Below, piece after piece: positions 142 to 46,042 of a stretch of DNA of 64,000 bases. The first letter of the stretch is position 1. The number at the start of each line of letters is the position of its first letter. Source of the stretch: Macrocystis pyrifera. Its lineage: Eukaryota; Sar; Phaeophyceae; Laminariales; Laminariaceae. The notes below the pieces were generated by a model that saw only the letters and a program-made list of their open reading frames with translations, had not been told where the DNA came from and made no database searches. The stretch spans positions 3,203,001-3,267,000 of the forward strand of contig JASSKH010000038.1 of NCBI GenBank assembly GCA_031763025.1. Reading direction: 5' to 3'. Made by a program: the position numbers and the translations under genes.

Positions 142-2571
142 CTGTTGAAACAAATATTTGGTTCGGTATGATTTGGTTTTTGGTTGATTCTTGGATTTTT
201 TTAGGCATGGTCATGGTTAGGATTGGTTCGGTTTGGTTCGATTCTTGTTTTTAGTTTCCAGTTTTATTTTTTTGGTCGGTTTGGTTTGGTAAGGTTTTGT
301 TACGTTAGGTACCTGGCACGTTTTTGTGCAATGTTTTGTTTTTAGGTTGGTTTGGTTTAATAATAGTAAGATTTAGTTTCATTTGATACCTGGTATGTTT
401 TCGTATATCGTGATCTGGTTCGGTTTGGTTTTGTGACAATAAAGGGGGAGAGTGGAGAAAAAAAAAGGAACAGAAAATAATGCCACATCATGTACCAACA
501 CATGAACACGGAAACAAAAAAGAAAAAAAAACACACACACACACACAGACCACACCTGATCGATCGTCTGGTTGCTTCCTGAGCCCCTGAGCTCCGGTGG
601 TCTGTCGGCCGTGAGCAGGAGCATTGGCAGCGCCGCTGCGTCCGCCTCTGCGGCGGCCGGCAAAAGGTTGGCCACTGCTGTCCCCGAGCTCGTTACCACC
701 GCACATAGCCCCCCCACCCGGCTCCGCCCACCCCTACCTCCACCCCCACCCCACCCCCCACCACCTCCATCAACACCCCGACCCTTACCACCAAAAACTA
801 CCAACATTACCACCGATACCACCACCACTAATACCACCAACACCCCCGCCATCAAACGTAGAAGGGCAGGGGTAGGAGGAGGAGGAGGAGGAGGAGAAAG
901 AGAACGGGGGAGGCGTCATCGTGTCCCCTCCTCCCGCGCGGGCGAAGCCTACGGCGTAGAAACCCGCTCCGCGCTCGTCGTGGTGAGATATCGACACCGC
1001 CGAGGGATGCCTAATGCCACCACAATGTTGGTAAGGGAAGGGAGGGGGGAGAGAGGGGAGGCGTACTCAATTGTTGCTTGCCTTAAGTCAGTTGACCATT
1101 GATCACACAATCCTTTGAGACAGAGCACCGTTCCTACTCCTGATAGACTGACACCTTCAACATTTGGGCGCTCATGACTTTCTTTTCCCGTATATTGCGG
1201 GTCGAGGCCAGGTGGAGGGTGCAGGGGACGGGCGATTTTGCGTTGACTGTGTCTTGCGTCGTCTGCCGCTGTCGATGTGATTGATTGATACAACTTCAGA
1301 AACGTCCGAGGGGACTATACTGCAATTCAGAGTCAACGCCGACTTGCACCCGTGTTTTAGTTAACAAAAAATCGTCTGTAGACTGACAAGCAGAAAGGAG
1401 GGGATAATGACAGGGACCAGTTGGGAAAACAGTACTACACATACATCGAAGGAGAAAGAGGGAAACTAATGCCCGCACCCCCTCGCCACCCGCCAGTCTC
1501 CCCACTCCCCCCCCCCACCCCACCAATACAGCAGCCATACCATGCTACAACCCATCACATCACACAACACCACACAGCACCCCCGCCAGCACCCCCGATT
1601 CCCACCTTCACCCCCCCCCCCCCCCTCCCCCCGGGCACCGCTCCCCCTCCCCGTTATCACACTACATCAAACTAAACTAAATCAAACCGAACTTAATCAC
1701 ACCACCGCGACCAAACCACTCTACAACACGCCAAGCGCGCCACACCCCACTATCCTAAAAACAACACTGCATAATACACAGGACAGTACACATTCGCCAT
1801 CGCATAAAACAGCGCCAACAACACCCACCACCCACCGTCCCAAACACCCCACCCCAATCATCACACCATGCCGTACCATACCGTATCAAACCGAACCAAA
1901 CCAAACCACACAATACCATACCACACCATACCATACCGTACCATGCCACGCCATGCCAAACCAAGCCAAACCAAACAATACCAAACCATACCATACCATA
2001 CCATCCACCGTACAACCGAGCAAACCCCCCCACGCCAAACCAAACCAAAACAACCCAACCCGAATGGAACGAAACGAAACCAAGCCAGACCACACCAAAT
2101 GATACCAAACCAAACCAAACCAAACCATACCCTACAATCCCATCGCATCCCGTATCAAACCATACTATACCTTCCCATACCATACCATACCACGACACGC
2201 CAAACCAAGCCGAAGCAAACCACCCAACCCTAAACAAAACCAAACCACATCACACCACACCATCGCCCACAAAACCAGATCACCCAACCCCCCAATCCCC
2301 AACCCCCCTGCCCCCCCCAACCCCGCCCCAACCAAAGCAAACCACCCCACTCCAAAACCAAACCACACACCGCCAAAGCTCACCTAGCGATGGCCACCGC
2401 AAGAGGAGTTGAGCGAGATCCGGGGCAAACGCAGAATCGAGTGACCCCCAGCCTCACCAGCTCCTCGACTACCAGCGCGCCCCACAGCGAGTTTACGTTG
2501 GGCAGACGGCGTAACGCTCGAACGGGTTTAGGGTGAAACAGAGACAGAAAATTCTTCATCTGTATGGCAAA

Positions 2572-2612
<41 letters not shown>

Positions 2613-5600
2613 GGAGGGGGGAGGCAGAGAGGAGGGTAGGGAGAGGAGGGGAGCGGGGGGTTGGGGAGGGACTAGTTGGGGAGAGGTGGCAGCGGCGGGG
2701 GGGGGAAGGGGGGGGGGTGTTCTCATTATCATGCATGGCCGTAGTCGTATGACCATAGACCCTCGCATCCCTACAGTGCCGCGACGGAGCACGCCGGGTT
2801 TTTTACCGACCAGACAGGCATTGCTCGCACCAAACGCGAAGCGCGCCGTAAATGTGTTGGGCGCGTTGCATGGACGGGTGAGCCGCATCCTACCGAGAAC
2901 CGCTTGTGAGGCGGGCTTAGGAAACCTTGTGCATGTTTTCTCGCACGCGAATGATAGCGTCGAAAGACTTGGTTCTGCTCTCCGGCGTGGCCACTCCCAG
3001 AGACAGCAGTGAGCATGCTGTGCAACTGCCTCCTGTGGGTGTCTGGTTATATGCACACTGCCGTGCCATACGACCATCCCCCTAGTGCGGAGCCACGGTT
3101 CTCCACCCCGCACAACTAAACCTCACTCGACCACCGTCCAGGGTGACCTCCGAAAAAAAAAAAAAAAAAAGCCAAGAAACGGTAGACGGTACCCTGGTTG
3201 TCTGGCTCAAGCAGCGGGTGGGGGAGGGTGGGTGGTGGTGTGGTGGCTCGGGAGAAGAGGGAGTTGTGGACTGGGGGAGGGGTAATGGTGGCGTAGGAGA
3301 GGGGGGGGGGGGGGGGGGGGGGGGAGTGGCCTGGAAGGAGAGAAGTTGCTTCCTCTCTTTTGAGATACATACTGGGTGTTCTTGGTTCACCCAAAAGAGG
3401 GCGGCACGAGGTGTTGTACAGTATATTGAGCACCTGGTATTGATTATTATTCGCGATGGTGGGTTTGATCGTTCATCGTTGACCGTTGATCGTCGGTCGT
3501 TGGTCGATGATCGTTGATTGAGGATCGTTGGTCGATGATTCGTTGGTTGACGATCGTTGGTCGATGATTCGCCACGGTGAACTCTTGCCCTAGCCCCCGG
3601 TGTCTGTATAAAATATTACTAAAAACGACAAAACACTGATACGTACCAGGTATAACATTACGTGCCAATGCTAAGAACACGCACATGATAACGGTGCTAC
3701 AATAGTACGGCAGGTATCAGTATGTCAGTGTACAAAAAAAATAGATAGGAAACACAAGAGAGCACACCACAGACCAATCCAACCCGACGCACGGCAAAGT
3801 CAAGTCAAGCCACGTCGAGTCAAGATAACACAAACACGAGAAAAGCGATAACCCAACCCCACCCAGCCCAACCCAACCAAACCCAATACAATCCAACTCT
3901 CAGCCCAACGCAACCCAACGCAACCCAACGCAAAACCAAAACGCGTATTGTACGTAACCAACCTCCAGTACACAACTCGCAAAGTCTACGTTTCTCCCAT
4001 TGTGCTTTGTCTGCTGTTTGCTTCGTTGAGCAACTTTCGCTCAGTTTGGCCGGTGTTCTTCAAGTCCCCCAAAAAAGCCCAATAATGCCAGCAACAGTTT
4101 ATACTCTACAAAGCCCAATTATGCTTCTTCTATGCCACAAAAGCCCAATTATGCTTCTTCTATGCTACAAAAGCCCAACCATGCTACGTTTACTAAAGCC
4201 CAAATGTGTTTTTTTTTACAAAGGTCCAAAATATGCTACTGCTTGTATATACCTTTATGCCGTTTAAAATAAAACAAACTGCACATACATATGCTGAAAA
4301 AATATGCCAGCATACCACCCCGAACGGCAATATAAGCGCCATTTGGACTCTGATGTCAATATAATACGTAGCTTACATTCCCGGTCATCAGAGCGCAGTA
4401 TAGGCCTCGCAAAACAAAAATCACCTATTAGCAGTACGAGCAAGCCTCAGGGCGTGTCCGAACATAATCGAAAATCGAAAATGAAAATCGAAATGGAAAA
4501 CCAAAACAAAACGAGGCGTTGATTGGTCCCTGACCCAAAAAAAATGTTCCCCCTCGTTTTTTTTTTTTTTAGGTTCAAAGAAAACGGATGATGTGCAACC
4601 CATTGTCAAAACAAAAAAGCATCCGCTTAGATTCGAAAAGAAAATCGAAAAAACACGAACAGCAATAATGTAGCGTGTCCCACTGAGCAGCGCAGCCGTA
4701 CACAGCACACGACCCACAGCTGGCACAGCCGCACAGCTGCCCCCTAACGAGCTAGCAGGAGAACCGCAACACCAGCCCCGATGTTGGCGGGCCTTTGTTT
4801 CCCGGCGTTAGAGTCAAAGCGAACATAGTTTGAGGATAATTCAGGGCGATGTCCTCGAGAGCGAGGTAGGAATTTCATTCTCAGAACCAGGAAAAAAAAA
4901 AAGTTTGATCCCGGGGCGTCAACGTTGGACGCGCCACCACCTCCATGGGAGGACCAACGACCTCCCGGAATCGAATTGCCGTCGCGTTTGCCTGCTTCTC
5001 TGGTGGATCCGTGTGATGCCGAGCGCTAGATTGCCGGATGTGTGCAAGGTTTTGAACGGCCCGTAAGTTGTGCTCTCCGTTGTTTTTCGCCCGGATTTCT
5101 ATTTTCACGTTTCGATTCTGTTAGGACACCACCTCGTCTGAAATACTCCCGAAAACGCAAGCATCTCGAATTTTCGATTTGCGACTACGATTCTGTTTCG
5201 GACGCGCCGTTAGAATTGTGAATCGTGACAGCATCCTTCTTCAACCTTGAGCATACACTGTTAATAGAATATAGAGTTTAGTGTTTCGCTCGCCGCTGAG
5301 CACAGGTTCTAAAGCCCAACTTCTCAAGGCTCTTCGAAAAAAGAGCATTATATTCTTGTTTCTTCTTAATAGGCCAGTCTTTATCCGTGGGCTTCTACTG
5401 CTGTATAGTGGGTATAATCGTACGCACCTTGACCCCTGTCTCGGCCCACTCCGACCTCGCCGTCGACCCTGGCACGATGCCTGCCCCCGCAAACAAAGTA
5501 ATTTCGGACGAAGAAGATGACCCTACCCCTACAACCCCCCCCCCCCCCCCCCCAGCGGTGGTGGTCGTGACGAGGGCGCTGCGGATAGCGACGGCAAATT

Positions 5601-8600
5601 CCCGCGCGCCGGCAGACAAGTATCCCACCGGGCCCGCATAGAAACCTCTGTGTGGCGTGCGATAGAGCAGGCAGTGATACAGAGGTCATGTATTGTGTGT
5701 TTTCGTTGCTTGGTTGTTGTGATATTCTTTGATAGTTTGTGATTTTTAGTTTTGTTTTTCGGTAAGAGGTGAAATGAAAATGAAAATGAACCCCAATCTC
5801 CTGCGCGCTCCCGGCAGATATGTATCCCACTGGGCTGGCTTACAAGCCTTCTGTATGTGCATGCTTGTCTGCGTGTGCGCCATACTTTGTATGGTAGAAT
5901 GGCGTCCTGTGCTCTCTTACCTGTCGAAGCCTTCGACCTCCCCGATGACGGAGTAGGTCACGTCCCGCGGCTCCCCGCAAACAGCAGCCGTCGGGTGCAT
6001 CTCCTCCAGTAACGCCCTCCCGGCGCCTATCCACTCCCCCTCCACCTCCTCCTTCTCGCTCGCCCCTCCCCCTCCTCCTCTTCCTCCCCCTCCTTCACCT
6101 TCTCTTCCTCCTCCTCTGCCTCCTCCTCCCCCTCTTCCTCCTTCTCGTCCCCCCCCCCCCCCCCCCCCCCAACCCGGTTCTCTCTCGAGCAAGGGTTTGT
6201 ACCTTGATAGGTGGTGGCGACAAACCGGACACCTTGGCATTGACCGGACCATCGCCGTTGGAGTTTAGTGTTGCTGTGATGCGCCTGATATCGATAACGA
6301 TAACGGAAACGACGACGGAAAAATATACGATAACGATATTAATACTGGCGAAAGCGGAGTATATCTACGTTCACGAGAGATGCATGTTTTGTTCACAACC
6401 GACGGAATTATTTATTTATAGTCATGGGCTCTACCGACGGAAACTAATAGCTGAAGTTGCCCAGAGGCAAGAGAGAAGAGAAGAACGGCCGCACTCGTCC
6501 CGCGCCCCCGCCTAGCTTCTCGTGATAGGTGCACAAGCAGAGCACGGCACTGCTCGCTGCCGATTGATAGGCCTAGAGGCTAGGTCTACTGTTGTGGTTT
6601 CGATAACGATATCAATACTGACACGCCAATAACAACGGCAAATATAACAGTGACTACGATAACGAAGGCAACGGGGGAAACGATAACGATATCGATACCG
6701 AAAACTAAAATCGACGGCCGCGATTACGACAACTACGACGGCAACGATGACGCCAAAATCAAACAACAAAAAATCAAGCAAATCAAACACGAAATACATA
6801 CTACATGTATCTTTTTTCGTGCGCCCTGGTCGATATATATGCCTTTCATTTTTTGGACTGCTGTATAGACTTCAAAACTTATCCGGTTGGTGCGGCCCTC
6901 GTTTTCGTTTCAGCTGCACCAAAACGCCGTCGGATCTAAACTTGCGTCACCCTCACCCCCACATACAAATGCCTCCGAAGGGAAACCTGATACTACATCA
7001 TATACGTACGATTACAGCTGCACCTGTTGATGTACCAGGTATATCTTTACCTGCAAATATGCTGCACGTGGGTGAGTCGCTTGAGACAAGCCTCAGAGCA
7101 CTCCAGGTCGACGGCACCCGCACGACGGAGCGCTGCCGACACGTAGTCAGCCGTAATCGCATTCTCCCGCATTTCCTATTTCAAACAACGTAAAGAACGA
7201 GGACAAGGACAAGTGAAACGATAAGAATAGGAACAAGAACAAGAGCAAAAACAATAAAAAAACAAAAACATGAACAAGAACGAAAGCAAAACAAGCACAG
7301 CAGCAGCAACAGGTGGGGGGGGAGAGAGAGAGAGAGAAAAGGGGGGGTACTCATTTGATGCTTGCCTTAGTCATTTGACAATTGACCACGCATACCTTTA
7401 TTTCTCTCTCTTCTCCCTCTCCCTCCCCCTGTCTCTCTTTCCCCTCCGTTCCTCCCCTTCCTCCCTCCCTCCGTCCGTCCTCCCTCCCTGACCCCCCCCC
7501 CCCTTTCCCCCCAAATTCCCCCCTCTGACCTTCTCACTACCCATGAGCTCCTCCCCTAGCCGTACATCCTCAGCTGGGGTGTCTCCCCTCGCCCTCGTAC
7601 CCGCCAGCGCCTCCGTAACCACTGTAGACCCCTTGGACAGAAACAGGCGCTCCGGCGTGCAGCCCAGAAACGCCGTGCTCGCATCGGGCTTCGAGAGGGT
7701 TTTGAAGTGAAATATATATATATTGACAGACAGGGGAGGTGGAGGATTAGTTCGAGCGAAATTTCACCTGGCTTCTAGAGGATTTCGTATTGAAATTAGC
7801 ATTTTGTAGTGAAACGTCGCAAGCAGGAGGCGTACTCATGCCCATGTGTACATGGCCATAGTCGTATGACCACCCAAGCAGGATGGGGGGGGGGGTGTAC
7901 CTGGTACTCGATATCATACATGGCCATAGCCGCATAACCATATAGCACCATCGCATCCCTGCAATGCCAGGACGGAGCACATCGGGTTTTCATCGACCAG
8001 GCAGGCATTGCTTGCACCAAGCGTGAACCGCCGTGAGGTGTTCGGCGAGTCGCATGGAGGGTGAGCTGCATCCTACTGCGAACCGCTTGTGAGGCGTACT
8101 TGCACATGGATGACAGCTTCAATGAGCAGTTGGGGGGGGGGGGGGGAGGAGGGGGGGGCTTGAGAGATGCGGGCGGGTGAGGAGGCTGGGGGGAGGGAGG
8201 GGTGTCTGTGATCACTCTTTAACCTTAGCTCATAATTCCAAGTGTAACAACTGTACAGTAATACTTTATTGTCCGGAGAACGAGGGGTACGTTGCGGAAA
8301 AATTGGAGCGCAGCGCGCGTGGGTCGACTTAGCACCTACAGCACAGCACAGCAGTTTATTGCAGTACGCGCACGAGAGTATCGGTACGCTACACATACAC
8401 CACTCACTCAACACAGGTACTACGGGGGAGCAGTAAATAGGACCAAATAATGTTAGTAAAAATAGGAAAATAAATAGGTTTACGTCTGTACCGTAGGTCC
8501 TACCAGGTATGTTTTATGCTCCCCCCGTAATATTTCTTTAATAGTAGTACGTGCAGGCAGAAGAGTTTCATCACTACTAACACCAAACTACACTAGGTGC

Positions 8601-13400: not shown

Positions 13401-16400
13401 TCCGCGGTGTTTTTCTGGAGAGAGGCTCGAATCGCGCACCGCCGTAGTATCTGGGCAATAACAGCGTCGATGATAGTAGCGGGGACGGAGGGAGAGGGGG
13501 AGAAGAGGGGAGCGGAGGGGGCGGTAGGGGTAGACGGGGAGGGAGGAAGAGGGGGGGGGGGGGGAGGGGACAGGGGGGGAGGGGGGGGGACGGAGGGGGG
13601 AGAGGGGATGGGGGGGAGCAAAGGGCGCGGGAAAGGGCATTTTCAAAAGGCCTCACTGACTCACGCGGTCAGAGGAGCGGGGGTGGGGGAAAGTTGGCTC
13701 AGGAGCATTCATCGTAGTGGTATGTACATGTGCGTGGGCCTAGCTCAAGGACACTACGCCTCCGTGGTTGTGTGAGTTCGTTTTCAGTTCTTCGCTGATC
13801 CGGATATCACTCACGGTCAAGGAGTCAAACAGGAGATACACCCCCCTTCCGTCCTCTCCTGCGCTTTGCTCATACATCCCCGCTCCGCTACTCTCGTCCA
13901 CCCCTAATCCCCCCCCGCCCTGTACCCCCCTACCCCCCCATTTCACCAGACACCCACCCCGTTCCCCTCTCGCTTCCTTCCGCCCCCCAGCCCTCCTCTC
14001 CCCCACCCCTCCTTATAAACGAAAACATCTCACAGCAACCCCCCCCCCTGTTAGGTTGTAGGCAAGATGGATGCGATCCTAACAGACTCGCACCTGACAC
14101 TAGGATTAAGAGATGTATCCTGATGAATGTGATAGTACCAAAGCTAGAATATGCAGGAGAAGTAGGGAACGCGAAACTCGTAAAACAGTTGGAAACAGTA
14201 CAGATGACAGCAGCTAAAAAAATCCTAGGACGCTCAAGCACGACTAGTAACACAGAATTAAGAGCAGAACTGGGAATGCGCCCACTCAAGACAAATAGAG
14301 ACATGAGAAAGTTGAACTGGCAATATAAAGCAAGGAACATGCCAAAAAAGAGGTTGCCAGCCATAGTTAGTTGATAGAGGTGTATGGGAGAAAGTAACAA
14401 AAGGGCGAGCTGGAATAAGGTGGGATGGCGTAGTTGAGAAAGTATGGAATGATCTAGGGGGAAACCAAGAAGAGATGATGTCCGCCGAGAAGTTTGGGAG
14501 GTACAAGGCAGAAGTAGAAGAAAGGATAGAAAGAAGGGAAAGGCTAGCGCTAAGAAACAAGGTGGAATAGGAAAAACACTCAGAGATATACGGGGGATTG
14601 AGGGAAGGAATAGGAATGAAAACGTATTTGCATGGCCCAATGGACGTCGTGAAAACGCTGAAACTGCGCTGTCGTGCAGGGGACCTGGACCTGCCAGAAA
14701 GAAGAAAGAGGTATACCAGTAGCCGGGAGGAGAGGAAGTAGATGCACAGATGTGCCCGTGTGGCAAAGCAATAGAGAGTAGAACTCACATAGTAGGTGAA
14801 TGTGAAATATACAAGGAGGAGCGGGAGGTGTTAGAAGAGGAGATGAGGGAAATAGACGAATGTGACATGGAGGAGTTTGATACAATGAATAGCAGCGAGA
14901 AAACGATCGCTATCCTAGGAGATAGATGGTGGCCACAGGCGGCCAGACACGGAGGGGATAAGATTAGCAAAAAGTTTCTATGCAATATATGGAAACAACG
15001 TAATGGGCGCCCAATTGTTGGAGGTGTCTCTATTAGGAGTAGGAACGGTGCTCCGTCTCGAAAGGGATGCGTGGTCAATGGTCAAATGACTAAGGCAAGC
15101 AAGAAATGAGTACGCGCCCCGCCCCCCCCCCTGTTAGGTTGGGTTGGCGTCGGTTGGCAACGACACTGCTGTAAAATATGCCGCTCACTACGTGGGCTAG
15201 ACAACTATTACGGGGGACCATAGTAAATAGGACCTACGGCACACACACACACAAAAACCTATATATTTAATTTTTTTCACTATTACAGGAGACCATAGTA
15301 AATAGGACCTATGGTACACACGAAAACCTACATATTTCACTATTTTTACTTACAATATTTGGTCCTATTTACTATGGGCACCCGTAATAGGGTGCCGTTT
15401 TTTTGTTTTCTTTTCTTTTGGCGTTCGGTCACTGGCGATCGAGCTATAGATCGTCTGTGCAGGGTGGAAAATGTTTACTGCGCACAAGGGGAATGATTGC
15501 ATCACGTAGTATTCATGGTAAGGCACCCACGACGCAGCTACATACCACCCCGATTGCTCTCTGGAAGTGGCTACACCGGAAATTAAACTAACTCAATTGA
15601 AGCTGTCATCCATATACAAGAGAATCCGCCTCTAAAGCGGTTCTTAGTAGGATGCAGCTCACCCTTCATGCGAACTCACCCAACATCTTACGGCGCTTCG
15701 CGCTTGGTGCACGCGATGTCTGTCTGGTCGGTGAAAATCCGACGTGCTCCGTCTCGGCATTGTAGGGATGCAATGGTCTATGGTCATACGACTACTGCCA
15801 TGCATGATATCGAGTACACCCCCCCCCCCTTCCCCCAAGCAACAAATGAGTACCCCCCCCCCCCCCCGATACGACTACGGCCATGCATGACACGAGTACA
15901 CCCCCTGCATCCACCCCCCCCCCCCTCCCTAATATTTTAGTGGGTATGATATGCTGTCACCCGGCGATGGTGGGTATGCGTGCCAAAATAGTTTAAACCC
16001 GAGTTTATCAGGTAAGATTTTAACAAAAACAAGAAACTTACCACACCTCGGATAAAGTAACACTTAACGTTTTATGTTTACGTTAGGCGTCAGCGAAAAA
16101 AAAACACGTGACATTACGTTACTACGTTAACTACTCTCTGGATTTTTTGATAACATAGTGTTAGTGTGTTATGATATTGGCGGGCGATCGCGTAACATTA
16201 TGTTAGAGTGTTACCTTGATCTCGTACTGACCGCAGTATATGTGTTACGGTGTTAGGGTATGCAGCCCATGGCGAGTAACACTATGTTAGCGTGTTAGCG
16301 GAATTCCTGGTGGCTATCGTATCACACGTTAAAGGGATAACGTACATGGTCACTTAAACGTTAACATTATGTTACCGTGTTAGCGGCATCAGCCCGTAGC

Positions 16401-18095
16401 GAGTAACGTTATGTTAGTGTGTCAGCGGGATTCTTCGTGCTACCGTAACACCCTTTCGACGGATAACGTACACGGGCCATATAAACGCGTACATAACACT
16501 ATGTTAGTGTGATAGTGAAATTCCTAGGGGCTATCGTAACAGACGTTAGAGAGATGACGTGCATGATCAATACAACGTTAACATTATGTTACTGTATCAG
16601 CCGCAGCACCAGTCCGTTTCGAGCGACGTTATGTGAGGGTATTACGGAAGTCTTGCTACCATAACAACATAACGTACGTCAAACGGATAACGTATATGAT
16701 GGATAAAAAAACACTATTAATAGCATTATGTTAATGCTGTCAACTCGTATGCAATGTATGTAGTGACACAAGTTAGTAGATAACGTACACCCTCAATCTA
16801 AACTCAACAATACATTACTGCCGTGTCAACTCGTACGTGCGAGTGTGCAGATTACGTTATAGATGGATAACGTAATGTGTTATAGATGGATAACGTACTG
16901 GCGGGGTTTCCACAAAAAAGAGGCGTTTTTTTTTGCGGGGATCCCTCATAAATATCCCCTGTTTTGGGGGTCTTAAAATATGGAGGCGTTTTTTTACCGG
17001 GGATGCCATGCTATCCTCCCCCCCGGGGATCTTTTTGTAGGTATCCCCTCTTGGGATGTCGGCGAAATTGGATAACACGGCTACGCTATGTTACTCCCAC
17101 ACGCCCGCTTTACCACTAACACAGGTAACACATGTTAGATCTCGGGAAGATCCAAAGGGTAACGTAGTAACATTACGTTAGAACGACTTCGGCCCCAACG
17201 GTAACTCAGTAACGTAAAGTTAGACCCGGATTGGTTTTTATGGTAACACGGTAACGGAATGTTACCATCAGATCTTTACTGACGGTAACACCGTAACATA
17301 ATGTTACAGGGACTTCCGCATTTAGGCTAACATCCTAATATAATGTTACGTATGGGCCGGCTAAGACTGTAACGTATCTAACATACGTTAAGTGTTACGT
17401 TATCCGATCCTAAGGCAATCAGATGGGGGGGGGTCCAGATAACGTAGTGTTAGTAGTGCTGGTCATTGCGTTATGTTACGCTAGTGTGTTATCTGTAACA
17501 CAATGTTATGTGTTAGTAGTGCTGGCGAACATGGTAACGTAATGTTAGGGTGTTATGTATAACACTCCTCCTAAGGGTAACTTAAATCTATTGTGCTACG
17601 TCTAACGCTGCGTCGACAATAACATTATGTTATCGTGTTAGTAAATATGCGGATATCGATCTGGGAATGTTAAGAGTGATAACGTACGTGTTTGGTCAAA
17701 GCCTAACACTGTGTCACGGTGTTAGTTCAAGGACTGACCGCGGCATAATATAATGTTACTGTACCAGAGCTGGACGAGACCAAGCAGCAACATAACGTTA
17801 AGGCTCGTGCACGTTCGTGGGTTTCCAGTTAACACTGTGTTACTGCGTTACCGTGATCGCTCCTCTAGCGCTAACACTATGTTAGTACGTTACCACGTTC
17901 CTGTGTTAGGCCCCATAACGTAGATAAGTGTTATCCGAGTGTTACCTTATCCGAGGTGTGAAACTTACATATTCCATCCCCGGACAAGCAGACGAAGACA
18001 TCCCCCATCCCCACCCCCCTCCCTTCCCACCCCTACCCCCCTGGCCAAATAAAGCCAGATATCCTACACACCTCCCTGGATATGCCGACCAAGGC

Positions 18096-18139
<44 letters not shown>

Positions 18140-18782
18140 ACCAAAGCCAAAGCCTCGAAACTCTCCCCATACAAGCAAGCGAACTCCCCCTCTTTACCCT
18201 TATGGTCATACGACTACGGTCATGCACGACATGAGTACCCCCCCTCCCCCTTAAAAAACCCAAGCACCCTTACACACACCTCAATCCCCGGACAAAACAG
18301 AATATTCAATAAATTCGACGCTATCATGCATAAACAAGAAAGTCCGCCTCACAAGCAGTCCTACTACTGTAAGCAGGGATGCAGCAGCCCACCCATCTTG
18401 CGACTCGCCCAACAACCTCACGTTTCGCTTCGCGTGTGGTGCAAGCAATGTCTGCCCGGTCGGTGAAAACCCACGTGCTCCGTCCCTGCATTGTAGGGAT
18501 GCGAGGGCCTATGGTTACACGACTACGGCCATGCATGAGATCGAGTACACCCCCCGCCCCCGTCCTTGCAGACGAAACAAACCACTCTCACACACCTCAT
18601 CCTCGGACAAGCAGACGAAGACGCCCCCTCCCACGCGCCGTCCTCCAGGCGGCCGGGGCCGGTCAAGACGTGAGCGGCCCCTATCCCAGCCGCGGTAATA
18701 CCCGCCTCGTTTTCCGTTCCCTGCTCTTCACCACCACCGCCACCACCACCACCGCCACAAGCAGTGCCACCGCCGCTGCTGC

Positions 18783-18818
<36 letters not shown>

Positions 18819-21310
18819 GGGTTCTCAAGAACGCTCTCGGTAGGGTAGGGTCAACGAAAGGGGCGGGGCGGGGCGGGGGCTGGGCTACGAACCACGCTAG
18901 CGGTGCTTCCTGTCCGTCTTCGCCGAGCTCCTCTGTGTCGATAAGGACCTGGGAGTAGGGGGAGGCAGGGGAAATACAGGGGTGGGAGGGGGGTAGGGTC
19001 GAGGTCGAGGTCGGGGTGAGGATGAGGGTGGCGGTGTGCTCATTTTTATCCATGACCGTAGTCATATAGACCCCCGCATCCCTACAATGCCGGGACGGAG
19101 AACGTCGTGTTTTCACCAAAGAGACAATGCTTGCTACGGGGTGGGGGTGAGGGTGGGGGTTTGGGGGGGGGGCGTACTCATTTCTTGCTTGCCTTAGTCA
19201 TTTGACCATTGACCACGCATCCCTTTCGAGACGGAGCACCGTTCCTACTCCTAATAGAGACACCTCCAACAATTGGGCGCTCATTACGTTGTTTCCATAT
19301 ATTACATAGAAGCTTTTTGCTAATCTTATCCCCTTCCTGTCTGGCCTCCTGTGGCCACCATCTATCTCCTGGGATAGCGATCGTTTTCTCGCTGCTATTC
19401 ATTGTATCAAACTCCTCCATGTCACATTCGTCTATTTCCCTCATCTCCTCTTCTAACACATCCCGTTCCTCCTTGTATATTTCACATTCACCTACCATGT
19501 GAGTTCTACTCTCTATTGCTTTGCCACACGGGCACATCTGTGCGTCTACTTCCTCCTCCTCCCCGGCTACTGGTGTACCTCTTTCTTCTTTCTGGTAGGT
19601 CCAGGTCCCCTACACGAAAGCGCAGTTTCAGCGTTTTCGCGACGTCCACTGGGCCATGCAAATACGTTTTCATACCTATTCCTTCCCTCAATCCCCCGTA
19701 TATCTGAGTGTTTTTCCGATTCCACCTTGTTTCTTAGCGCTAGCCTTTCCCTTCTTTCTATCCTTTCTTCTACTTCTGCCTTGTACCTCCCAAACTTCCC
19801 GGCGGACATCATCTCTTCTTGGTTTCCCCCTAGATCATTCCATACTTTCTCAACTACGCCATCCCACCTTATTCCAGCTGGCCCTTTTGTTATTTTCTCC
19901 CATACAGCTCTATCAACTATGGTGGGCAACCTCTTTTTTGGCATGTTCCTTGCTTTATATTGCCAGTTCAACTTTCTCGTGTCTCTATTTGTCTTGAGTG
20001 GGCGCATTCCCAGTTCTGCTCTTACTACTGTATTACTAGTCGTACTTGAGCATCTTAAGGATTTTTTTAGCTGCTGTCATTTGTACTGTTTCCAACTGTT
20101 TTACGAGTTTCGCGTTCCCTTCCCATAACTCTCCTGCCTATTCTAGCTTTGGTACTATCACATTCATCAAGATACATCTCTTAATCCCAGTGTCAAGGTT
20201 CGGGTCTGTTGGGATGGCATCCATCTTGCTTACTTGTGCCTTACCCTTTCCTATTACTTTTGCTGTATATGTGTCCCAAGAGCAGTCTTTTGAGATATCT
20301 ATGCCAAGGTATGTACACTGGTCTACGGTTGGGGGGGGTTGTTGAATTTGGGGAAGGGGTGGAGATAGAGGCGGAAGGAGGGACGAGGGGCGTGGTGAGA
20401 GGTGGGGGGAGGCGTGGGGGTAGAGGTGGAGGTGGTATCGGGTCAAAAGAGACAACCCACTGAACCAATCAGTCAGTCAGCGCCGACTTGGTGGTCTAGT
20501 AGGTGATCCGTTCGGCCCAATACGTGGGGGCAGAGGTGGAGGTGGCAGTGGCGGTGAGGGTGGGGGGGGGGGGGGTGAGAACAGGGGTGGAGGTTGGGGT
20601 GGGAGTAGGGGCGAAGGTGGGGATGGTGGTGGTGGTGGTGGAAGGTGGTGGTATTTACTCTGGTAGAAGAGAGGCGGGGGAGGTGGGGGTATGGGCGGGG
20701 TGGAGTCCCTTCCATGTATCCATTTCTCTACTGTATCTCTCGTTCTTTCAGCCCCGCCCCTCTCCTGTCACTCTCGCTCTCGCTAGATAAGTTGTCCCTT
20801 TTTCCCCCCTCGTCTCTCTCTCTCTGCATCTCCGACAACGCAAGGAGTAACCGAGTGTACAGCCTTCTCCAATACCTAGCATCCCCCCCTCCCCCTCCAT
20901 TCGAAACCGTCACCCAAGGCAAGAAAGCTCAAAAGCGGTTCAGAAAGTCCGCCTCAAAAGCGGTTCTTAGTAGGATGCAGCTCACCTCTCTTGCGAGTCG
21001 CCCAACACCTCACGGCACTTCGCGCTTGGTGCAAAAATCGTCTTCCTGGTCGGTGAAAACCCGACGTGATCCGTCCCGGCATTGTAGGGATGCGAGGTGC
21101 ATGACAATAATACACTACCCCCCCCCCCCCCCTCTTCCCCTCTGCCCACTTACCTCGAGCCTAATCCAGAACACTTGGTCGCCGCCACCCCCGCTCAACG
21201 ACGGCGAAGAAAATTCCTGGAAAAACCTCTCGCCAGCGTTGTTGACGGCGTCCAACAGAATGTCCCGCGCTTTCCACAACGGAACCGCCCCCACCACCAC
21301 CCCCTGAACC
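1..21310 (-). CDS. PHYLLO: PHYLLO-type MenF-MenD fusion gene, 3' part cut by window edge
   Basis: Multi-exon gene on the minus strand; the exons are listed separately below. The MenF part (isochorismate synthase, chorismate to isochorismate) carries, in order, [114 protein letters not shown] and AGAGIV. The MenD part (ThDP-dependent SEPHCHC synthase) carries [49 protein letters not shown] and [12 protein letters not shown]. In plants and several algae these domains are fused, followed by MenC and MenH, in the phylloquinone pathway. The F-then-D order here fits, so MenC/MenH should lie to the left of base 1. Intron phases agree between almost all neighbouring exons. MenF and MenD are recognised with high confidence. 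That they form one transcript is inferred from order, strand, phase and known fusions. No plastid-targeting leader was identified. Confidence 0.85.
142..555. other. PHYLLO intron with GGTTTGG-type low complexity
   Basis: Degenerate GGTTTGGTTT/GGTTCGG sequence over about 150-430, then A-rich and (AC)n at 510-550. One TACCTGGTA palindrome lies at 387-395. No gene seen. Confidence 0.6.
556..733 (-). CDS. PHYLLO: PHYLLO exon: MenD TSGTAVAN exon
   Basis: Reads [39 protein letters not shown], then SNQTIDQ to a GTGTGG donor in phase 0. These are near-canonical MenD motifs. The upstream border lies in a G-rich stretch, with an AG at 734-735 or 722-723; both keep phase. The intron to the previous exon would be only about 50-65 bases. 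Confidence 0.93.
789..1010 (-). CDS. PHYLLO: PHYLLO exon: MenD DER motif with Ser/Gly insertion
   Basis: The acceptor GGCATTAG gives [20 protein letters not shown] and VGFARA. DER carries the Glu that activates ThDP in MenD. No GT donor follows at the expected place. The frame instead runs through a Ser run and a Gly-rich stretch to a good donor (GTAAGGG) at 781-788. That donor is phase-compatible with the next exon, so I infer an in-frame low-complexity insertion of about 50 residues. A non-canonical donor near 930 is the alternative. Confidence 0.8.
1065..1240 (-). mobile_element. LINE-A 3' fragment in a PHYLLO intron
   Basis: On the minus strand this matches the last 130-170 bases of the LINE-A copies at 14 and 19 kb: AACGGTGCTCYGTCTC, then GGTCAA..TGACTTAAGGCAAGC, then GAGTACGCC followed by a C/T-rich run. 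It is 5'-truncated and diverged. Confidence 0.7.
1490..2370. repeat. C/A-rich degenerate microsatellite
   Basis: Roughly 850 bases of ACC, CCATA and CCAAA permutations (the minus strand reads TGGTATGG/GGTTTGG). It fills the MenD intron. Long open frames here are composition artefacts. Confidence 0.85.
2384..2516 (-). CDS. PHYLLO: PHYLLO exon: MenD N-terminus
   Basis: Reads [20 protein letters not shown] and [20 protein letters not shown] up to the donor GCTAG/GTGAGC. The LVEELxRLGV..PGSRSTPL motif opens the MenD thiamine-diphosphate fold, and the Ser-Arg pair contacts substrate in characterised MenD. The downstream border is firm in phase 2. The upstream border is a guess (CGAG at 2517-2520). 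A homopolymeric G tract and SINE sequence lie just upstream. Confidence 0.88.
2573..2720. repeat. G tract (C on minus strand) beside a SINE-C end
   Basis: A run of about 39 G at 2573-2611 continues into G-rich sequence and directly abuts the C-tract end of the SINE-C copy at 2725. Confidence 0.85.
2725..2965 (-). mobile_element. SINE-C copy (C-tract-ended short element)
   Basis: A dispersed unit of about 240 bases, also found near 7.9, 15.7, 18.4, 19.0, 21.0, 45.9 and 63.0 kb. Reading 5' to 3' on the minus strand: GCCTCACAAGCGGTTCTCGG, GGATGCGGCTCA, GGTAAAAAACCC, TAGGGATGCGAGGGTCTATG, TCATACGACTACGGCCATGC, then a short end and a C tract. It has no coding capacity. A B-box-like GGTGAAAACCC is seen in better copies. 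Confidence 0.7.
3455..3575. repeat. GATCGTTGGTCGATGATTC tandem repeat
   Basis: Several diverged tandem copies of a roughly 20-30 base unit made of GATCGTTGGTCGATGATTC. Confidence 0.7.
4070..4200. repeat. Short tandem repeat, 27-30 base unit
   Basis: Three to four copies of AAAAGCCCAATTATGCTTC.. in direct tandem. No gene recognised between 2966 and 5427, apart from low-complexity sequence. Confidence 0.7.
5428..5647 (-). CDS. PHYLLO: PHYLLO exon: MenF C-terminal exon
   Basis: The acceptor CACACAG opens [19 protein letters not shown] and VAIRSALV. A Gly/Ser-rich in-frame insertion follows, then LFAGAGIV and SEWAETGVK up to AAG/GTGCGTAC. RGxYxGPVG and AGAGIVxGS..EWxET are the closing motifs of isochorismate synthases. 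It joins the previous exon exactly (Arg codon split AG/A). Confidence 0.94.
5770..5880 (-). pseudogene. Decayed partial copy of the MenF C-terminal exon start
   Basis: About 120 bases upstream of the genuine last MenF exon, the intron holds a second, mutated version of that exon's first 50 or so bases. It reads CCAGTGGGATACATATCTGC where the true exon has CCGGTGGGATACTTGTCTGC. It also keeps an AGAAGG acceptor-like start. The frame degenerates and does not continue. It looks like a small local duplication that captured the intron/exon border and then decayed. Confidence 0.6.
5921..6058 (-). CDS. PHYLLO: PHYLLO exon: MenF HPTPAVxG exon
   Basis: Reads [18 protein letters not shown] and [10 protein letters not shown] up to the donor GACAG/GTAAGAG. 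The downstream border is firm. The upstream border at AGC (6058-6060) is chosen because it alone keeps phase. It adds an acidic leader (EKEEVEGEW) derived from a GGA/GAG microsatellite at 6060-6170. Confidence 0.85.
7051..7175 (-). CDS. PHYLLO: PHYLLO exon: MenF HVQH exon
   Basis: The acceptor AAATAG and donor TGCAG/GTAAAG enclose [18 protein letters not shown] and then [16 protein letters not shown]. The family usually has K(D)xxEHxxVVDY, so Asn replaces the usual His next to the conserved Glu. The HVQH strand is typical of isochorismate synthases. Confidence 0.93.
7345..7398 (-). mobile_element. LINE-A terminal 3' fragment
   Basis: Only the last 40 or so bases of LINE-A: minus strand ATGCGTGGTCAATTGTCAAA.., then GCAAGCATCAAATGAGTAC, then a CCCCCCC run. 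It is an extremely 5'-truncated insertion or relic, still ending at the same GAGTAC-C junction. Confidence 0.6.
7530..7688 (-). CDS. PHYLLO: PHYLLO exon: MenF GASPERL / ALAGTR exon
   Basis: Exactly 53 codons between CTCTCGAAG and [46 protein letters not shown], then [18 protein letters not shown]. FLGxxPERLF and the TExLAGTRxRG loop carry catalytic and Mg2+/chorismate contacts in the family. Phase 0 at both ends. Confidence 0.95.
7820..8130 (-). mobile_element. SINE-C copy with a second 3' end downstream
   Basis: A full unit occupies about 7905-8130, with the C tract (G on plus) at 7885-7895. A second 3'-end fragment (CATGTACACATGGGCATGAG) lies at 7825-7870. The junction holds TACCTGGTA at 7898-7906. 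Another C/G run at 8130-8150 borders the 5' side. Confidence 0.65.
8419..8532. mobile_element. MITE-1 copy
   Basis: TA-flanked foldback element with TTACGGGGG..CCCCCGTAA ends. Near its right end the conserved ..GGTCCTATTTACTATG.. is replaced by GGTCCTACCAGGTATG, a 7-base CCAGGTA gain at a TA. Confidence 0.8.
8813..8885. mobile_element. MITE-3 copy
   Basis: A 70-75 base foldback with ends AGTGCAGTCCCG..CGGGACTGCAGTACT around a GGGGACA..TGTCCCC inner repeat. Siblings lie at about 46.8, 47.2 and 54.3 kb. It abuts the next MITE-1 copy. Confidence 0.75.
8886..9006. mobile_element. MITE-1 copy with internal CCAGGTA gain
   Basis: TA-flanked, with ends TTACGGGGG and CCCCCGTAA. Its middle reads AAAACCTACCAGGTATAT where siblings have AAAACCTATATATTT. 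Confidence 0.85.
9035..9279. mobile_element. MITE-2 copy with internal GTATGGCATAGTGCCGGTTGA repeats
   Basis: Starts GTGGTCCCTCTATAGTGCCG and ends with CGGCACTAC after an inner GGCACTATAGAGG, like copies near 48.3, 49.0 and 52.4 kb. This copy has three tandem TATAGTGCCGGTTGAGTATG units after its left end. Confidence 0.65.
9489..9549. repeat. Long near-perfect hairpin
   Basis: Twenty-base arms TGTTCGAAACATAAAGGATA are perfectly complementary across a short centre, which itself pairs (ACTGAG..CTCAGT). The whole 61 bases can fold into one hairpin. Confidence 0.85.
9568..9871 (+). mobile_element. TIR element family 4, copy 1
   Basis: About 300 bases. The left end GGGCTGTTCGGCTTTGCACG pairs with the right end CGCGCAAATACGAACAGCCC. 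A second copy in the opposite orientation lies at 63.34-63.63 kb and shares internal blocks (GGGAGCAGGGTACC, GGTCAAAGTGCC). No coding capacity. The A run at 9830-9840 is internal. Confidence 0.65.
9937..10051 (-). CDS. PHYLLO: PHYLLO exon: MenF catalytic KVVLAR exon
   Basis: A strong acceptor (TTTTTTCAG) and a strong donor (CAG/GTACTC) enclose [17 protein letters not shown], then [12 protein letters not shown] and [15 protein letters not shown] is a signature of isochorismate/anthranilate/salicylate synthases; its Lys is the general base in the MenF/EntC family. The exon is in phase with both neighbours. Confidence 0.95.
10296..10456. repeat. (AGT)n microsatellite
   Basis: About 160 bases of near-pure AGT/TAG with a few AGC units, in a PHYLLO intron. 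It creates spurious poly-Ser/poly-Leu frames on both strands. Confidence 0.95.
10539..10618 (-). CDS. PHYLLO: PHYLLO exon: short MenF exon before KVVLAR
   Basis: Eighty bases between the acceptor TGCTGTGCAG and the donor AACAAAAG/GTGCTATA read [20 protein letters not shown] and then DDMENK. The [10 protein letters not shown] helix sits where MenF has W..xVxxAL before KVVLAR. The two leftover bases plus the first base of the next exon make an Arg codon, so the phase is exact. Confidence 0.85.
11570..11800. repeat. AACC/AATC tetranucleotide-rich region
   Basis: Degenerate CAACCAACCAATCAATCAA repeats in a PHYLLO intron. Flanking 10.65-11.57 kb is A/C-rich spacer. A frame at about 10860-11035 on the minus strand ([16 protein letters not shown]) looks protein-like but does not fit the MenF order. 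Confidence 0.7.
11980..12457 (-). CDS. PHYLLO: PHYLLO exon: MenF with Gly/Asn/Ser repeat expansion
   Basis: Open frame reading [16 protein letters not shown], then a long Gly-Asn/Gly-Ser repeat encoded by degenerate hexanucleotides (12090-12345), then [27 protein letters not shown] matches the strand after LPxVEL in MenF, and the Ala/Arg helix fits the segment before the catalytic half. The frame stays open through about 250 bp of microsatellite. An Asp run further upstream (12470-12540) is probably intronic, because phase-matching acceptors lie at 12455-12458. The downstream border is uncertain. Confidence 0.6.
12612..13035. repeat. Degenerate GGGTA/GGATA pentamer array
   Basis: About 420 bases of TAGGG, GGATA and GGTAAGG units. 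It resembles a telomere-like satellite but is not an exact (TTAGGG)n array. It sits in the intron upstream of the repeat-rich MenF exon. Confidence 0.9.
13221..13450 (-). CDS. PHYLLO: PHYLLO exon: MenF YGGxRF / LPxVEL region
   Basis: The acceptor GCCCAG precedes [11 protein letters not shown]. An Ala/Thr-rich insertion ([15 protein letters not shown]) follows, then [22 protein letters not shown] up to a GTGAATGATG donor. The YGGxRF and FLPxVEL strands are typical of isochorismate synthases and flank a loop that is expanded here. The exon ends with one base and the next supplies two, so the frame is kept. Confidence 0.85.
13490..13640. repeat. G/A-rich low-complexity tract
   Basis: Runs of G with AGGGGA interruptions between the MenF exon at 13.45 kb and the LINE-A copy. 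No exon recognised here. A small candidate at 13807-13870 (minus, VYLLFDSLT) did not fit in phase. Confidence 0.7.
14059..15130 (+). mobile_element. LINE-A copy, 5'-truncated, with target duplication
   Basis: Non-LTR retrotransposon 3' part inserted in the largest PHYLLO intron. The plus strand carries the post-RT region ([60 protein letters not shown]) and, after stops and frame changes, a C-terminal Cys-rich knuckle ([20 protein letters not shown]). It ends CAAGCAAGAAATGAGTACGC and a C-rich tail. CTGTTAGGTTG occurs immediately before (14048-14058) and after (15131-15141), the target-site duplication expected of LINE insertion. The opposite-strand copy lies at 19.2-20.3 kb. Confidence 0.88.
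14750..15109 (+). pseudogene. LINE-A C-terminal zinc-knuckle fragment
   Basis: An open frame of 119 codons reading [17 protein letters not shown] (a C.C..H....C pattern typical of LINE C-termini), then an acidic helix and [14 protein letters not shown]. It is separated by stops and frameshifts from the RT-derived part at 14123-14374, so this copy is dead. Confidence 0.75.
15206..15280. mobile_element. MITE-1 left-end fragment
   Basis: The left half of MITE-1 (TATTACGGGGGACCATAGTA) with a (CA)n insertion, abutting a full copy. Confidence 0.75.
15281..15389. mobile_element. MITE-1 copy
   Basis: TA-flanked, with ends TTACAGGAGACC and GGGCACCCGTAA and the usual CCATAGTAAATAGGACC inner arm. Confidence 0.85.
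15600..15835 (+). mobile_element. SINE-C copy, best preserved
   Basis: Runs from GAAGCTGTCATCCATATAC through GGTTCTTAGTAGGATGCAGC, GGTGAAAATCCGACG, CATTGTAGGGATGCAATGG and CATGCATGATATCGAGTAC to a C tract. Confidence 0.8.
15836..15930 (+). mobile_element. Chain of 3' ends: LINE-A tail, then SINE-C tail
   Basis: Directly after the SINE-C C tract comes AAGCAACAAATGAGTAC plus C14, the LINE-A terminus. Then CGACTACGGCCATGCATGAC..GAGTAC and another C-rich tail follow, a SINE-C terminus. Three successive C-tailed ends lie within 120 bases. Confidence 0.75.
16034..16041. repeat. Left 8-bp target duplication AAACTTAC
   Basis: Identical to 17961-17968, immediately outside the inverted termini of the hAT-like element. 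Confidence 0.9.
16042..17960. mobile_element. hAT-like non-autonomous DNA transposon
   Basis: The left end CACACCTCGGATAA-A-GTAACACT and the right end (minus strand) CACACCTCGGATAA-G-GTAACACT match at 22 of 23 bases. Both are flanked by the same 8 bases. An 8-bp duplication and CA-starting TIRs are typical of the hAT superfamily; P and Merlin elements also make 8-9 bp duplications. The 1919 bases code for nothing recognisable. They are packed with at least 25 variants of the imperfect palindrome TAACATTATGTTA followed by GTGTTAGCGG, often with GGATAACGTAC. The left half shows a higher-order period near 219 bases. The centre (16900-17060) is different: G/C runs and AGGCGTTTTTTT repeats. Confidence 0.85.
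17961..17968. repeat. Right 8-bp target duplication AAACTTAC
   Basis: See the left copy at 16034-16041. Confidence 0.9.
18098..18137. repeat. C tract of about 40 bases
   Basis: A near-pure C run between the hAT-like element and SINE-C fragments. Confidence 0.9.
18190..18250 (+). mobile_element. SINE-C 3'-end fragment
   Basis: TATGGTCATACGACTACGG..CATGCACGACATGAGTAC plus a C-rich run. Confidence 0.65.
18310..18562 (+). mobile_element. SINE-C copy
   Basis: Near full length, from GACGCTATCATGCATAAAC to CATGCATGAGATCGAGTACA plus C-rich sequence. It ends about 35 bases from the donor of the PHYLLO exon at 18596. Confidence 0.75.
18596..18948 (-). CDS. PHYLLO: PHYLLO exon: MenF module with Ser/Gly-rich insertion
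   Basis: A pyrimidine-rich acceptor (CTCCCAG) opens [27 protein letters not shown] low-complexity stretch of Ser and Gly runs follows, encoded by CTG/CCG-type trinucleotides at 18720-18815. The exon then returns to [18 protein letters not shown], the usual GxGxA strand of the chorismate-binding fold. The donor ATGAG/GTGTGTGAG is in phase 2 and joins exactly to the phase of the next exon, giving [11 protein letters not shown]. An earlier donor after LEDG also fits in phase. The Ser/Gly run is absent from ordinary family members. Confidence 0.75.
19020..19145 (-). mobile_element. SINE-C 3' half
   Basis: Minus strand: CCGGCATTGTAGGGATGCGG, GACTACGGTCATGGATAAAA and GAGCACACC, followed by C-rich sequence. 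5'-truncated. Confidence 0.65.
19165..20340 (-). mobile_element. LINE-A copy in opposite orientation, 5'-truncated
   Basis: On the minus strand this reads [20 protein letters not shown], then [50 protein letters not shown], and the knuckle [20 protein letters not shown]. It ends CAAGCAAGAAATGAGTACGC plus a C run (G on plus, 19158-19170). It extends about 110 bases further 5' than the copy at 14 kb. The two copies form a widely spaced inverted repeat around the hAT-like element and one PHYLLO exon. Several frames are broken. Confidence 0.85.
20935..21136 (+). mobile_element. SINE-C copy next to the first PHYLLO exon
   Basis: GCGGTTCTTAGTAGGATGCA..GGTGAAAACCCGACGTG..CATTGTAGGGATGCG, then a C tract. 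It ends 18 bases from the PHYLLO donor at 21144-21153. Confidence 0.75.
21154..21310 (-). CDS. PHYLLO: PHYLLO exon: N-terminal part of the MenF module
   Basis: Reads [33 protein letters not shown] and ends at a consensus donor (CTCGAG then GTAAGT) in phase 0. The next exon opens in phase 0, and the joined [18 protein letters not shown] resembles the start of isochorismate synthases. The upstream border is unclear. A different frame over 21310-21450 (MAYTPGAVRKRGVVSLTPRLL) may belong to the first exon, joined either by a very short intron or by a homopolymer indel in the G-rich stretch at 21290-21305. Confidence 0.65.
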
Positions 21311-32550: not shown

Positions 32551-32604
32551 GTGATAGAGTACCTTGGTTGGTAGTCAATAGACCAACCATCAGTAGGGGC
32601 CGTT

Positions 32605-45732: not shown

Positions 45733-46042
45733 TAAGTGTAAGGCAGTATATGGACCTAGGGACCTCCTGCTAGCAGGTGATGCCTTTGGCTCTGCTCTGG
45801 TCACTTACACAAGTTGCTTGACGATGTCAGAAGTTACAAGATTTAGTATTAATAATAGTTGCTGCTTGCCTCGCCAGATGTCTCTGAACGAAGGGGGTGT
45901 ACTCGATAGGAGAGATGTACTCGATCTCATGCATGGCCGTAGTCGTATGACCATATCAGAGAGGCAGGCCTGCCAGGTATGATGAGGGGACGATTGGTAC
46001 AACCATAATGCCGCAACAGGGGAGAGGGGATACCATAACGCC
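45733..46042. repeat. Direct duplication, copy 2, split by SINE-C
   Basis: The same block as 44.63-44.89 kb but interrupted at 45893-45960 by a SINE-C end, so copy 1 is the empty site. Confidence 0.8.
45893..45960 (-). mobile_element. SINE-C 3' fragment filling a duplicated block
   Basis: Minus strand: ATATGGTCATACGACTACGG, CCATGCATGAGATCGAGTAC, then GAGTACACCCCC. Extremely 5'-truncated. Confidence 0.7.

What the first reader, a model, noticed from the sequence alone, without database searches (positions are those of the whole stretch)
14059..21136. LINE-A and SINE-C share a GAGTAC + C-tract 3' end: C-tailed or C-tract-targeted retrotransposition
Seen: every LINE-A end (1.07, 7.35, 15.11, 15.85, 19.17 kb) and SINE-C end (2.7, 7.9, 15.8, 15.9, 18.2, 18.5, 21.1, 45.9, 63.0 kb) stops at GAGTAC or a close variant, followed by a C run. 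The 15.84-15.93 kb stretch chains three such ends. LINE-A at 14.06 kb has a target duplication CTGTTAGGTTG on both sides, placing the C-rich run at the element border. Known: SINEs often borrow the 3' end recognised by a partner LINE's reverse transcriptase, and most LINE tails are A-rich or microsatellite. Inferred: this pair uses poly(C), or primes on genomic C tracts. The 14 kb target also has Cs before CTGTTAGG, so both readings stay open.
Basis: partly seen in the sequence, partly recalled or inferred. Interest (0 to 1): 0.85.

Follow-up and report, generated by a model that had tools for sequence, protein, structure and literature searches.

The report
Kelp retrotransposons that target C-tracts
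In the giant kelp genome, a LINE retrotransposon and a short partner element that shares its 3' end appear to insert, in a fixed orientation, into genomic runs of the base C, so that copies typically sit between two C-runs and often pile up head-to-tail like train carriages.

Summary
The window lies in the 537-Mb Macrocystis pyrifera assembly. The exact 19-mer LINE-A 3' end occurs 4632 times; 3486 (75%) run into N+CCCCC. SINE-C shares about the last 70 nt of LINE-A (score 37; best of 300 shuffles 17.5).

C-runs lie at BOTH ends, on one strand: within 3-20 nt of 40 of 42 reverse-strand SINE-C 5' cores (G-runs: 0 of 91 sites) and within 25 nt of 77 of 104 unchained copies (background 4%; MITE control 4 of 91). 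In the window the LINE-A target duplication is 20 bp, C10+TGTTAGGTTG; its right copy is the 5' edge of a SINE-C. Same-strand trains are common (75 of 199 copies; 2 with opposite neighbours). No clear insertion into an element body was found; two odd cases are told.

Best model: target-primed reverse transcription by an APE-type LINE at C-tracts, the nicked G-strand as primer: the C counterpart of Candida Zorro3, which targets poly-A. Whether the RNA also carries C's is unproven, and no empty site was found. New variant of a known kind.

The parts
14039..14058 (+). Left copy of the 20-bp target-site duplication C10TGTTAGGTTG, including the C-run
14059..15113 (+). LINE-A, 5'-truncated copy (starts at position 1423 of a 2483-nt reference that is itself 5'-incomplete), ends GAGTAC at 15108-15113
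15122..15141 (+). Right copy of the target-site duplication; its TGTTAGGTTG is the 5' edge of a SINE-C
15132..15817 (+). Nearly full-length SINE-C (matches 15135-15203 and 15389-15817), interrupted by a MITE at about 15204-15388
15818..15836 (+). C-tract after the SINE-C end (A C11 TT C5)
15837..15853 (+). 17-nt LINE-A 3' tip AAGCAACAAATGAGTAC between C-tracts
15853..15867 (+). C15 tract (includes the last base of GAGTAC)
15868..15899 (+). 32-nt SINE-C 3' tip ending GAGTAC
18201..18238 (+). SINE-C 3' fragment followed by a C-tract
18290..18548 (+). SINE-C, 5'-truncated, followed by a C-tract
19036..19134 (-). SINE-C 3' fragment, same strand as and 3' of the LINE-A at 19174-20332 (train); 3' flank C-rich without a long run
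19174..20332 (-). LINE-A, 5'-truncated; stop codon of the reading frame 19178-19609 overlaps the terminal GAGTAC
20942..21117 (+). SINE-C, 3' end diverged, followed by C15 (21118-21132)
1063..1196 (-). LINE-A 3' fragment, interrupted C-rich tract after the end
2719..3221 (-). SINE-C, long copy; C10 after the 3' end, C-rich 5' flank without a C-run of 5 in 25 nt
7347..7399 (-). LINE-A 3' fragment
7904..8125 (-). SINE-C with C15 close to its 5' end and C11 after the 3' end
45917..45955 (-). SINE-C 3' fragment with duplicated GAGTAC extension, then C5
62971..63129 (-). SINE-C 3' fragment followed by C10

Best explanation
LINE-A is an APE-endonuclease LINE with close relatives in Ectocarpus, and SINE-C is its short non-autonomous partner; they share a ~70-nt 3' end that stops at GAGTAC, mostly followed by G in LINE-A and by A or C in SINE-C. 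SHOWN by sequence: most copies sit in C-tracts, with the element sense strand on the C strand; C-runs flank both ends of full-length and of 5'-truncated copies; in a few copies the target duplication includes the C-run plus 8-13 bp downstream; many copies stand in head-to-tail trains joined by C-tracts. INFERRED: the endonuclease nicks the G-strand inside the tract; the G-ended 3'-OH is held against the RNA 3' end (GAGTAC plus a few C's read from the C-tract downstream of the source copy) and primes first-strand synthesis; second-strand cleavage usually also falls in the tract, so most target duplications are C-only and invisible. Each insertion would turn one C-tract into two and so leave landing sites for the next.
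For: 3' side: 3486 of 4632 exact ends followed by N+C5; 10,266 GAGTAC+N+C15 sites versus 28 for the reversed pattern. 5' side: C5 lies 3-20 nt upstream of the SINE-C 5' core at 40 of 42 reverse-strand sites and 31 of the first 33 listed sites, compared by eye; with GGGGG 0 of 91 sites. Unchained copies 77 of 104 (LINE-A truncated 33/42, SINE-C truncated 26/43, SINE-C full 18/19) versus 4.1% background and 4 of 91 MITE termini. TSDs containing the C-run: window LINE-A, L055, L030, L011; 9 of 186 copies at score >=9 versus 2.0 expected from shuffled flanks. Trains: 75 of 199 3'-complete copies have a same-strand neighbour within 90 nt downstream, 2 an opposite-strand one (79 and 2 neighbour relations). 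Divergences in 65 train pairs are uncorrelated, rho 0.12, p 0.33, and 23 of 65 differ at p<0.05; 36 of the 65 pairs join a LINE-A and a SINE-C, whose divergences are not strictly comparable. Of 16 broken LINE-A/SINE-C bodies in the pool loci (overlapping loci counted more than once) only L087 holds a LINE-A or SINE-C, and it reads as a tandem duplication. APE endonuclease: fragment in L093 and full-length relatives. SINE/LINE 3' homology.
Against: No true empty site was found. TSDs extending past the C-run are detectable in few copies (9 of 186, some of them weak). 1146 of 4632 exact ends are not followed by N+C5. 27 of 104 unchained copies lack a 5' C-run (17 of them truncated SINE-C), and a handful of 3' ends have none (e.g. 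L013, L034, L071, L087). In L086 a full-length SINE-C abuts the body of another SINE-C at CTCA|CCC without a C-run, right half not found: a possible insertion into a body. 3' tracts are slightly longer than 5' tracts (111 versus 66), so some C's may come from the RNA or from slippage. Tract length changes after insertion (L069/L070: C12 versus C20), so lengths carry little information. RNA-structure support for the shared end is weak (z -0.4 to -2.1; the window SINE-C folds differently; no alifold consensus).
Confidence: 0.8

Rival explanations
1. Non-targeted insertion of an RNA that carries an untemplated or RT-added poly(C) tail.
For: A C-tract follows most 3' ends and is slightly longer than the 5' one; GAGTAC is mostly followed by a family-specific base, G in LINE-A and A or C in SINE-C.
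Against: It cannot give C-runs 5' of the element, seen at 40 of 42 reverse-strand SINE-C sites and 77 of 104 unchained copies; nor the C-run inside both copies of the window TSD.
Confidence: 0.06
2. Trains come from template jumping or from transcripts that span several elements, in one integration event, rather than from repeated targeting.
For: Head-to-tail order is what end-to-end template jumping predicts (known for R2; recalled, and a citation seen).
Against: Divergences of partners are uncorrelated (rho 0.12) and 23 of 65 pairs differ at p<0.05, though 36 of the 65 pairs are between families; unchained copies also have C-runs on both sides; partners start at varied truncation points.
Confidence: 0.07
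3. C-runs arose or were copied to the 5' side after insertion, by recombination or slippage between tracts, or are assembly noise.
For: C-tracts change length (L069/L070) and are very common, 82,393 of 15 or more bases; the assembly is from PacBio reads.
Against: Strand specificity (0 of 91 sites with G-runs; 4 of 104); MITE termini in the same loci show 4 of 91; length noise would not place tracts at element borders.
Confidence: 0.05

Closest known systems
Zorro3 (LINE of Candida albicans), PMC1965478
   Same: Target-primed LINE that inserts into homopolymer tracts, begins and ends in the same homopolymer, and shows no large deletions or duplications at its targets; the authors propose that the nicked target flap anneals to the RNA tail (passages seen).
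   Different: Poly-A/T instead of poly-C/G; 30 assayed insertions with known pre-insertion sites; no SINE partner in the passages seen; the tail is poly-A.
'Stringent' LINE/SINE pairs such as the eel UnaL2 pair, reviewed in PMC3747384
   Same: The SINE carries the LINE 3' end, presumably for recognition by its RT (passages and section 17 read).
   Different: Tails named there are poly-A or short repeats (TAA, TGTAA); no C-tract in what I read.
Microsatellite-targeting LINEs: Togen (TG)n and some HERO families (PMC4640811); Kojima & Fujiwara 2004 (title seen in a reference list only)
   Same: Simple-sequence DNA as target of a non-LTR retrotransposon (passages seen).
   Different: Those named are RLE-type lineages with (TG)n or unspecified microsatellites, not a C homopolymer; LINE-A is APE-type.

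Membership tests
Non-LTR retrotransposon (LINE), APE type | Reverse transcriptase of RVT_1 type | tested here: met
   Pfam RVT_1 E 2.9e-20 in L091; top solved chains are 8c8j 'RNA-directed DNA polymerase' and LINE-1 ORF2 protein
Non-LTR retrotransposon (LINE), APE type | AP-like endonuclease domain | tested here: met
   L093 fragment matches Exo_endo_phos_2 E 6.8e-4, below the gathering score; relative P0121 E 7.2e-8, above it; 34% identity over 87 aa between them
Non-LTR retrotransposon (LINE), APE type | 5' truncation and fixed 3' end | tested here: met
   3'-complete LINE-A copies start at reference positions 771-2445
L1 clade | Position inside the L1 clade in an RT tree | not tested
   No reference set of clades was held; only pairwise PDB scores favour L1 over R2
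SINE mobilised by a partner LINE | 3' end shared with a LINE of the same genome | tested here: met
   Score 37 versus shuffle maximum 17.5; bodies 18.5
SINE mobilised by a partner LINE | Pol III-type head (tRNA, 5S or 7SL) | tested here: inconclusive
   No tRNA in 5 loci; in 4 loci only three weak miRNA-family matches below gathering score, all at one place in L072
Homopolymer-tract-targeting LINE (Zorro3-like behaviour) | Homopolymer of the same kind at both borders | tested here: met
   met by most copies, not all
Homopolymer-tract-targeting LINE (Zorro3-like behaviour) | Empty sites carry the homopolymer | tested here: inconclusive
   No empty site in the 352-kb pool; the C-run lies inside both TSD copies in the window
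Zorro3 lineage | Sequence or phylogenetic membership | not tested
   Works like Zorro3; no claim of membership

The most novel reading that the evidence does not exclude
A LINE/SINE pair that lives on homopolymeric C-tracts: the tract is target, primer strand and source of the RNA tail at once, and each insertion splits one tract into two, so the system breeds its own landing sites and may account for part of the 82,393 C-tracts of 15 or more bases in the kelp genome (10,266 GAGTAC+N+C15 sites lie at such tracts).
Probability: 0.4. Interest if true: 0.8.

Novelty: new variant of a known kind. Interest (0 to 1): 0.7.

Why it matters
It would extend homopolymer targeting by LINEs from poly-A to poly-C and pair it with a SINE that uses the same sites, in a brown alga. 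It offers a natural test of whether base-pairing between the nicked target strand and the RNA tail decides where LINEs insert: the same logic with G:C instead of A:T. It also raises the question why poly(C/G) tracts are so common in a kelp genome.

Tried and rejected
Poly(C) tail alone: rejected because of 5' C-runs. Template jumping for trains: disfavoured by uncorrelated divergence. L087 looked like an insertion into a SINE body; the repeated identical junction reads as a tandem duplication instead. L086, a SINE-C abutting a SINE-C body without a C-run, stays unexplained. L051 looked like an empty site; its left flank is the MITE and its right flank another repeat, so it tells nothing. Empty-site search in the pool found nothing usable. 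RNA structure: folds of the two consensus ends suggest a GUGCUC/GAGUAC closing stem and two hairpins, but z-scores are weak, the window SINE-C folds differently and alifold gave no structure. Viral-contig scan with P0109 found nothing. Of the 9 TSD hits, L025, L067 and L087 are weak or not TSDs. Dropped rows: copies with identical end keys (252 to 238); copies without a 3' end or too near a locus edge were left out of flank counts.

Full report
Source. The window is G000:C128:3203001-3267000 of a 537,376,219-bp assembly in 223 contigs. Size, contig number and N50 (13,669,674, which is the length of contig C196) match the published Macrocystis pyrifera assembly (PMC10498591; passages seen, part of the abstract among them).

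Observation. To avoid choosing copies by their ends, I also sampled by internal queries (30 loci each of the 40 best scored hits). In those loci 32 of 35 3'-complete LINE-A and 49 of 54 3'-complete SINE-C copies have a C-run of 5 or more within 45 nt of GAGTAC. Over the whole pool (window plus L001-L091, 351,986 bases, 238 distinct copies after removal of duplicates by end sequence) the figures are 81 of 87 and 102 of 113. Genome-wide, 3486 of 4632 exact LINE-A ends continue into N+C5.

Extension variant. At least 15 SINE-C ends carry ATCTCTCCTATCGAGTAC or a near variant first and then the C's.

C-runs on both sides. Among unchained copies (no other annotated element end within 120 nt upstream and no GAGTAC within 110 nt), 77 of 104 have a C-run of 5 or more within 25 nt 5' of the element: 33 of 42 truncated LINE-A, 26 of 43 truncated SINE-C, 18 of 19 full-length SINE-C. 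Background in element-free sequence of the pool is 4.1%, and G-runs (within 45 nt) occur in 4 of 104. Termini of a MITE family in the same loci, as a control for 'ends of transposons', give 4 of 91. Genome-wide, the SINE-C 5' core 21-mer occurs at 49 + 42 sites. C5 lies 3-20 nt upstream at 40 of the 42 reverse-strand sites, where the listing shows one match per site; the forward count of 285 is inflated by overlapping starts, and of the first 33 sites in the list 31 are present (compared by eye). With G5 in place of C5 the count is 0.

Target duplications. The window LINE-A is flanked by CCCCCCCCCCTGTTAGGTTG at 14039-14058 and 15122-15141. The right copy runs into a SINE-C (15132-15817, interrupted by a MITE), so LINE-A entered the C-run that preceded that SINE-C. 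Similar duplications containing a C-run and 8-13 further bases occur in L055, L030 and L011; in all, 9 of 186 copies score >=9 against 2.0 expected with shuffled flanks, and three of the nine are weak. Most copies show none, as expected if both cuts fall within the tract.

Trains. Of 199 3'-complete copies, 75 have another element on the same strand within 90 nt downstream and 2 one on the opposite strand. In 65 pairs with both members of 60 nt or more, divergence from the majority sequence is uncorrelated (rho 0.12, p 0.33) and differs at p<0.05 in 23; 29 pairs are within one family, 36 between families. This points to successive insertions, with the caveat that the families may differ in rate.

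Bodies. Among 16 broken LINE-A/SINE-C bodies found in the pool loci (some loci overlap), only L087 holds another LINE-A or SINE-C, and its repeated junction reads as a tandem duplication; several hold the MITE or other inserts. In L086 a full-length SINE-C abuts a SINE-C body at CTCA|CCC; the right half was not found, so an insertion into a body with only CCC is possible there. Bodies fill 24.6% of the pool and 6.8% of the window.

The machinery. LINE-A encodes a reverse transcriptase (Pfam RVT_1 E 2.9e-20). A longer copy shows an endonuclease fragment (L093, Exo_endo_phos_2 E 6.8e-4, below the gathering score), and the 1034-aa relative P0121 has both domains (E 7.2e-8 for the endonuclease). 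In the 120 relatives listed the organisms named are Ectocarpus; the wider list also names a fish and a bacterial MAG. The top solved chains are 8c8j, 'RNA-directed DNA polymerase', and LINE-1 ORF2 protein. The reading frame ends in ...KASKK (window) or ...KASNK (P0109), and its stop codon TGA overlaps the terminal GAGTAC, so there is almost no 3' UTR. No complete LINE-A 5' end was seen. SINE-C has no recognisable tRNA or Rfam head. About its last 70 nt align with LINE-A far above shuffles (37 versus 17.5).

Tail or target. The 5' C-runs and the TSDs with a C-run show that the tract is a property of the target. The longest C-run within 45 nt is longer on the 3' than on the 5' side in 111 and shorter in 66 of 187 pairs (p 0.0009). 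That leaves room for a few C's from the RNA, but tracts also change length (C12 versus C20 in the duplicated locus L069/L070). The simplest mechanism, inferred, is the one proposed for Zorro3 with poly-A (PMC1965478, passages seen), transposed to C:G.

Scale. The genome holds 82,393 C-tracts of 15 or more bases on the two strands, and 10,266 GAGTAC+N+C15 sites (28 for the reversed pattern). Thus very many tracts are not directly preceded by an intact end. Whether the elements make tracts or only use them is open.

Literature. In the listings and passages seen I found no LINE or SINE described as targeting C homopolymers. This is not a proof of absence: listings were capped at 6 to 20 papers and most subscription papers are not held.

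Noticed in passing
window 15204-15388; also L015, L056, L083: Abundant short inverted-repeat element (termini near TTACGGGGGACCATAG / CTATGGNCCCCCGTAA, TA target) interrupts LINE-A and SINE-C bodies; used here as a control.
   Followed up: partly
window about 16050-17940: About 1.9 kb packed with degenerate TAACAC/GTGTTA and TAACGTTATGTTA-like words; origin unknown.
   Followed up: no
window 31930-32560: Several GAGTACTGAGAGTA-like words that are not followed by C-tracts and look unrelated to the element ends.
   Followed up: no
L083, L090, L059, L093 and others; window 45899-45955: SINE-C end variant with a second copy of GAGTAC (ATCTCTCCTATCGAGTAC) before the C-tract, as if the 3' end had been extended once.
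   Followed up: partly
L069 and L070: Duplicated locus whose SINE-C C-tract is C12 in one copy and C20 in the other: tract length changes after insertion (or is misread).
   Followed up: partly
whole genome G000: 82,393 C-tracts of 15 or more bases (one per 6.5 kb) in a genome of about 50% GC.
   Followed up: partly
window 19174-19180 and other LINE-A copies: The LINE-A stop codon overlaps the terminal GAGTAC, so coding sequence and the presumed RNA recognition end coincide.
   Followed up: partly
L086 1451-2077 (minus strand): A full-length SINE-C abuts a SINE-C body at CTCA|CCC with no C-run between; right half of the host not found.
   Followed up: partly
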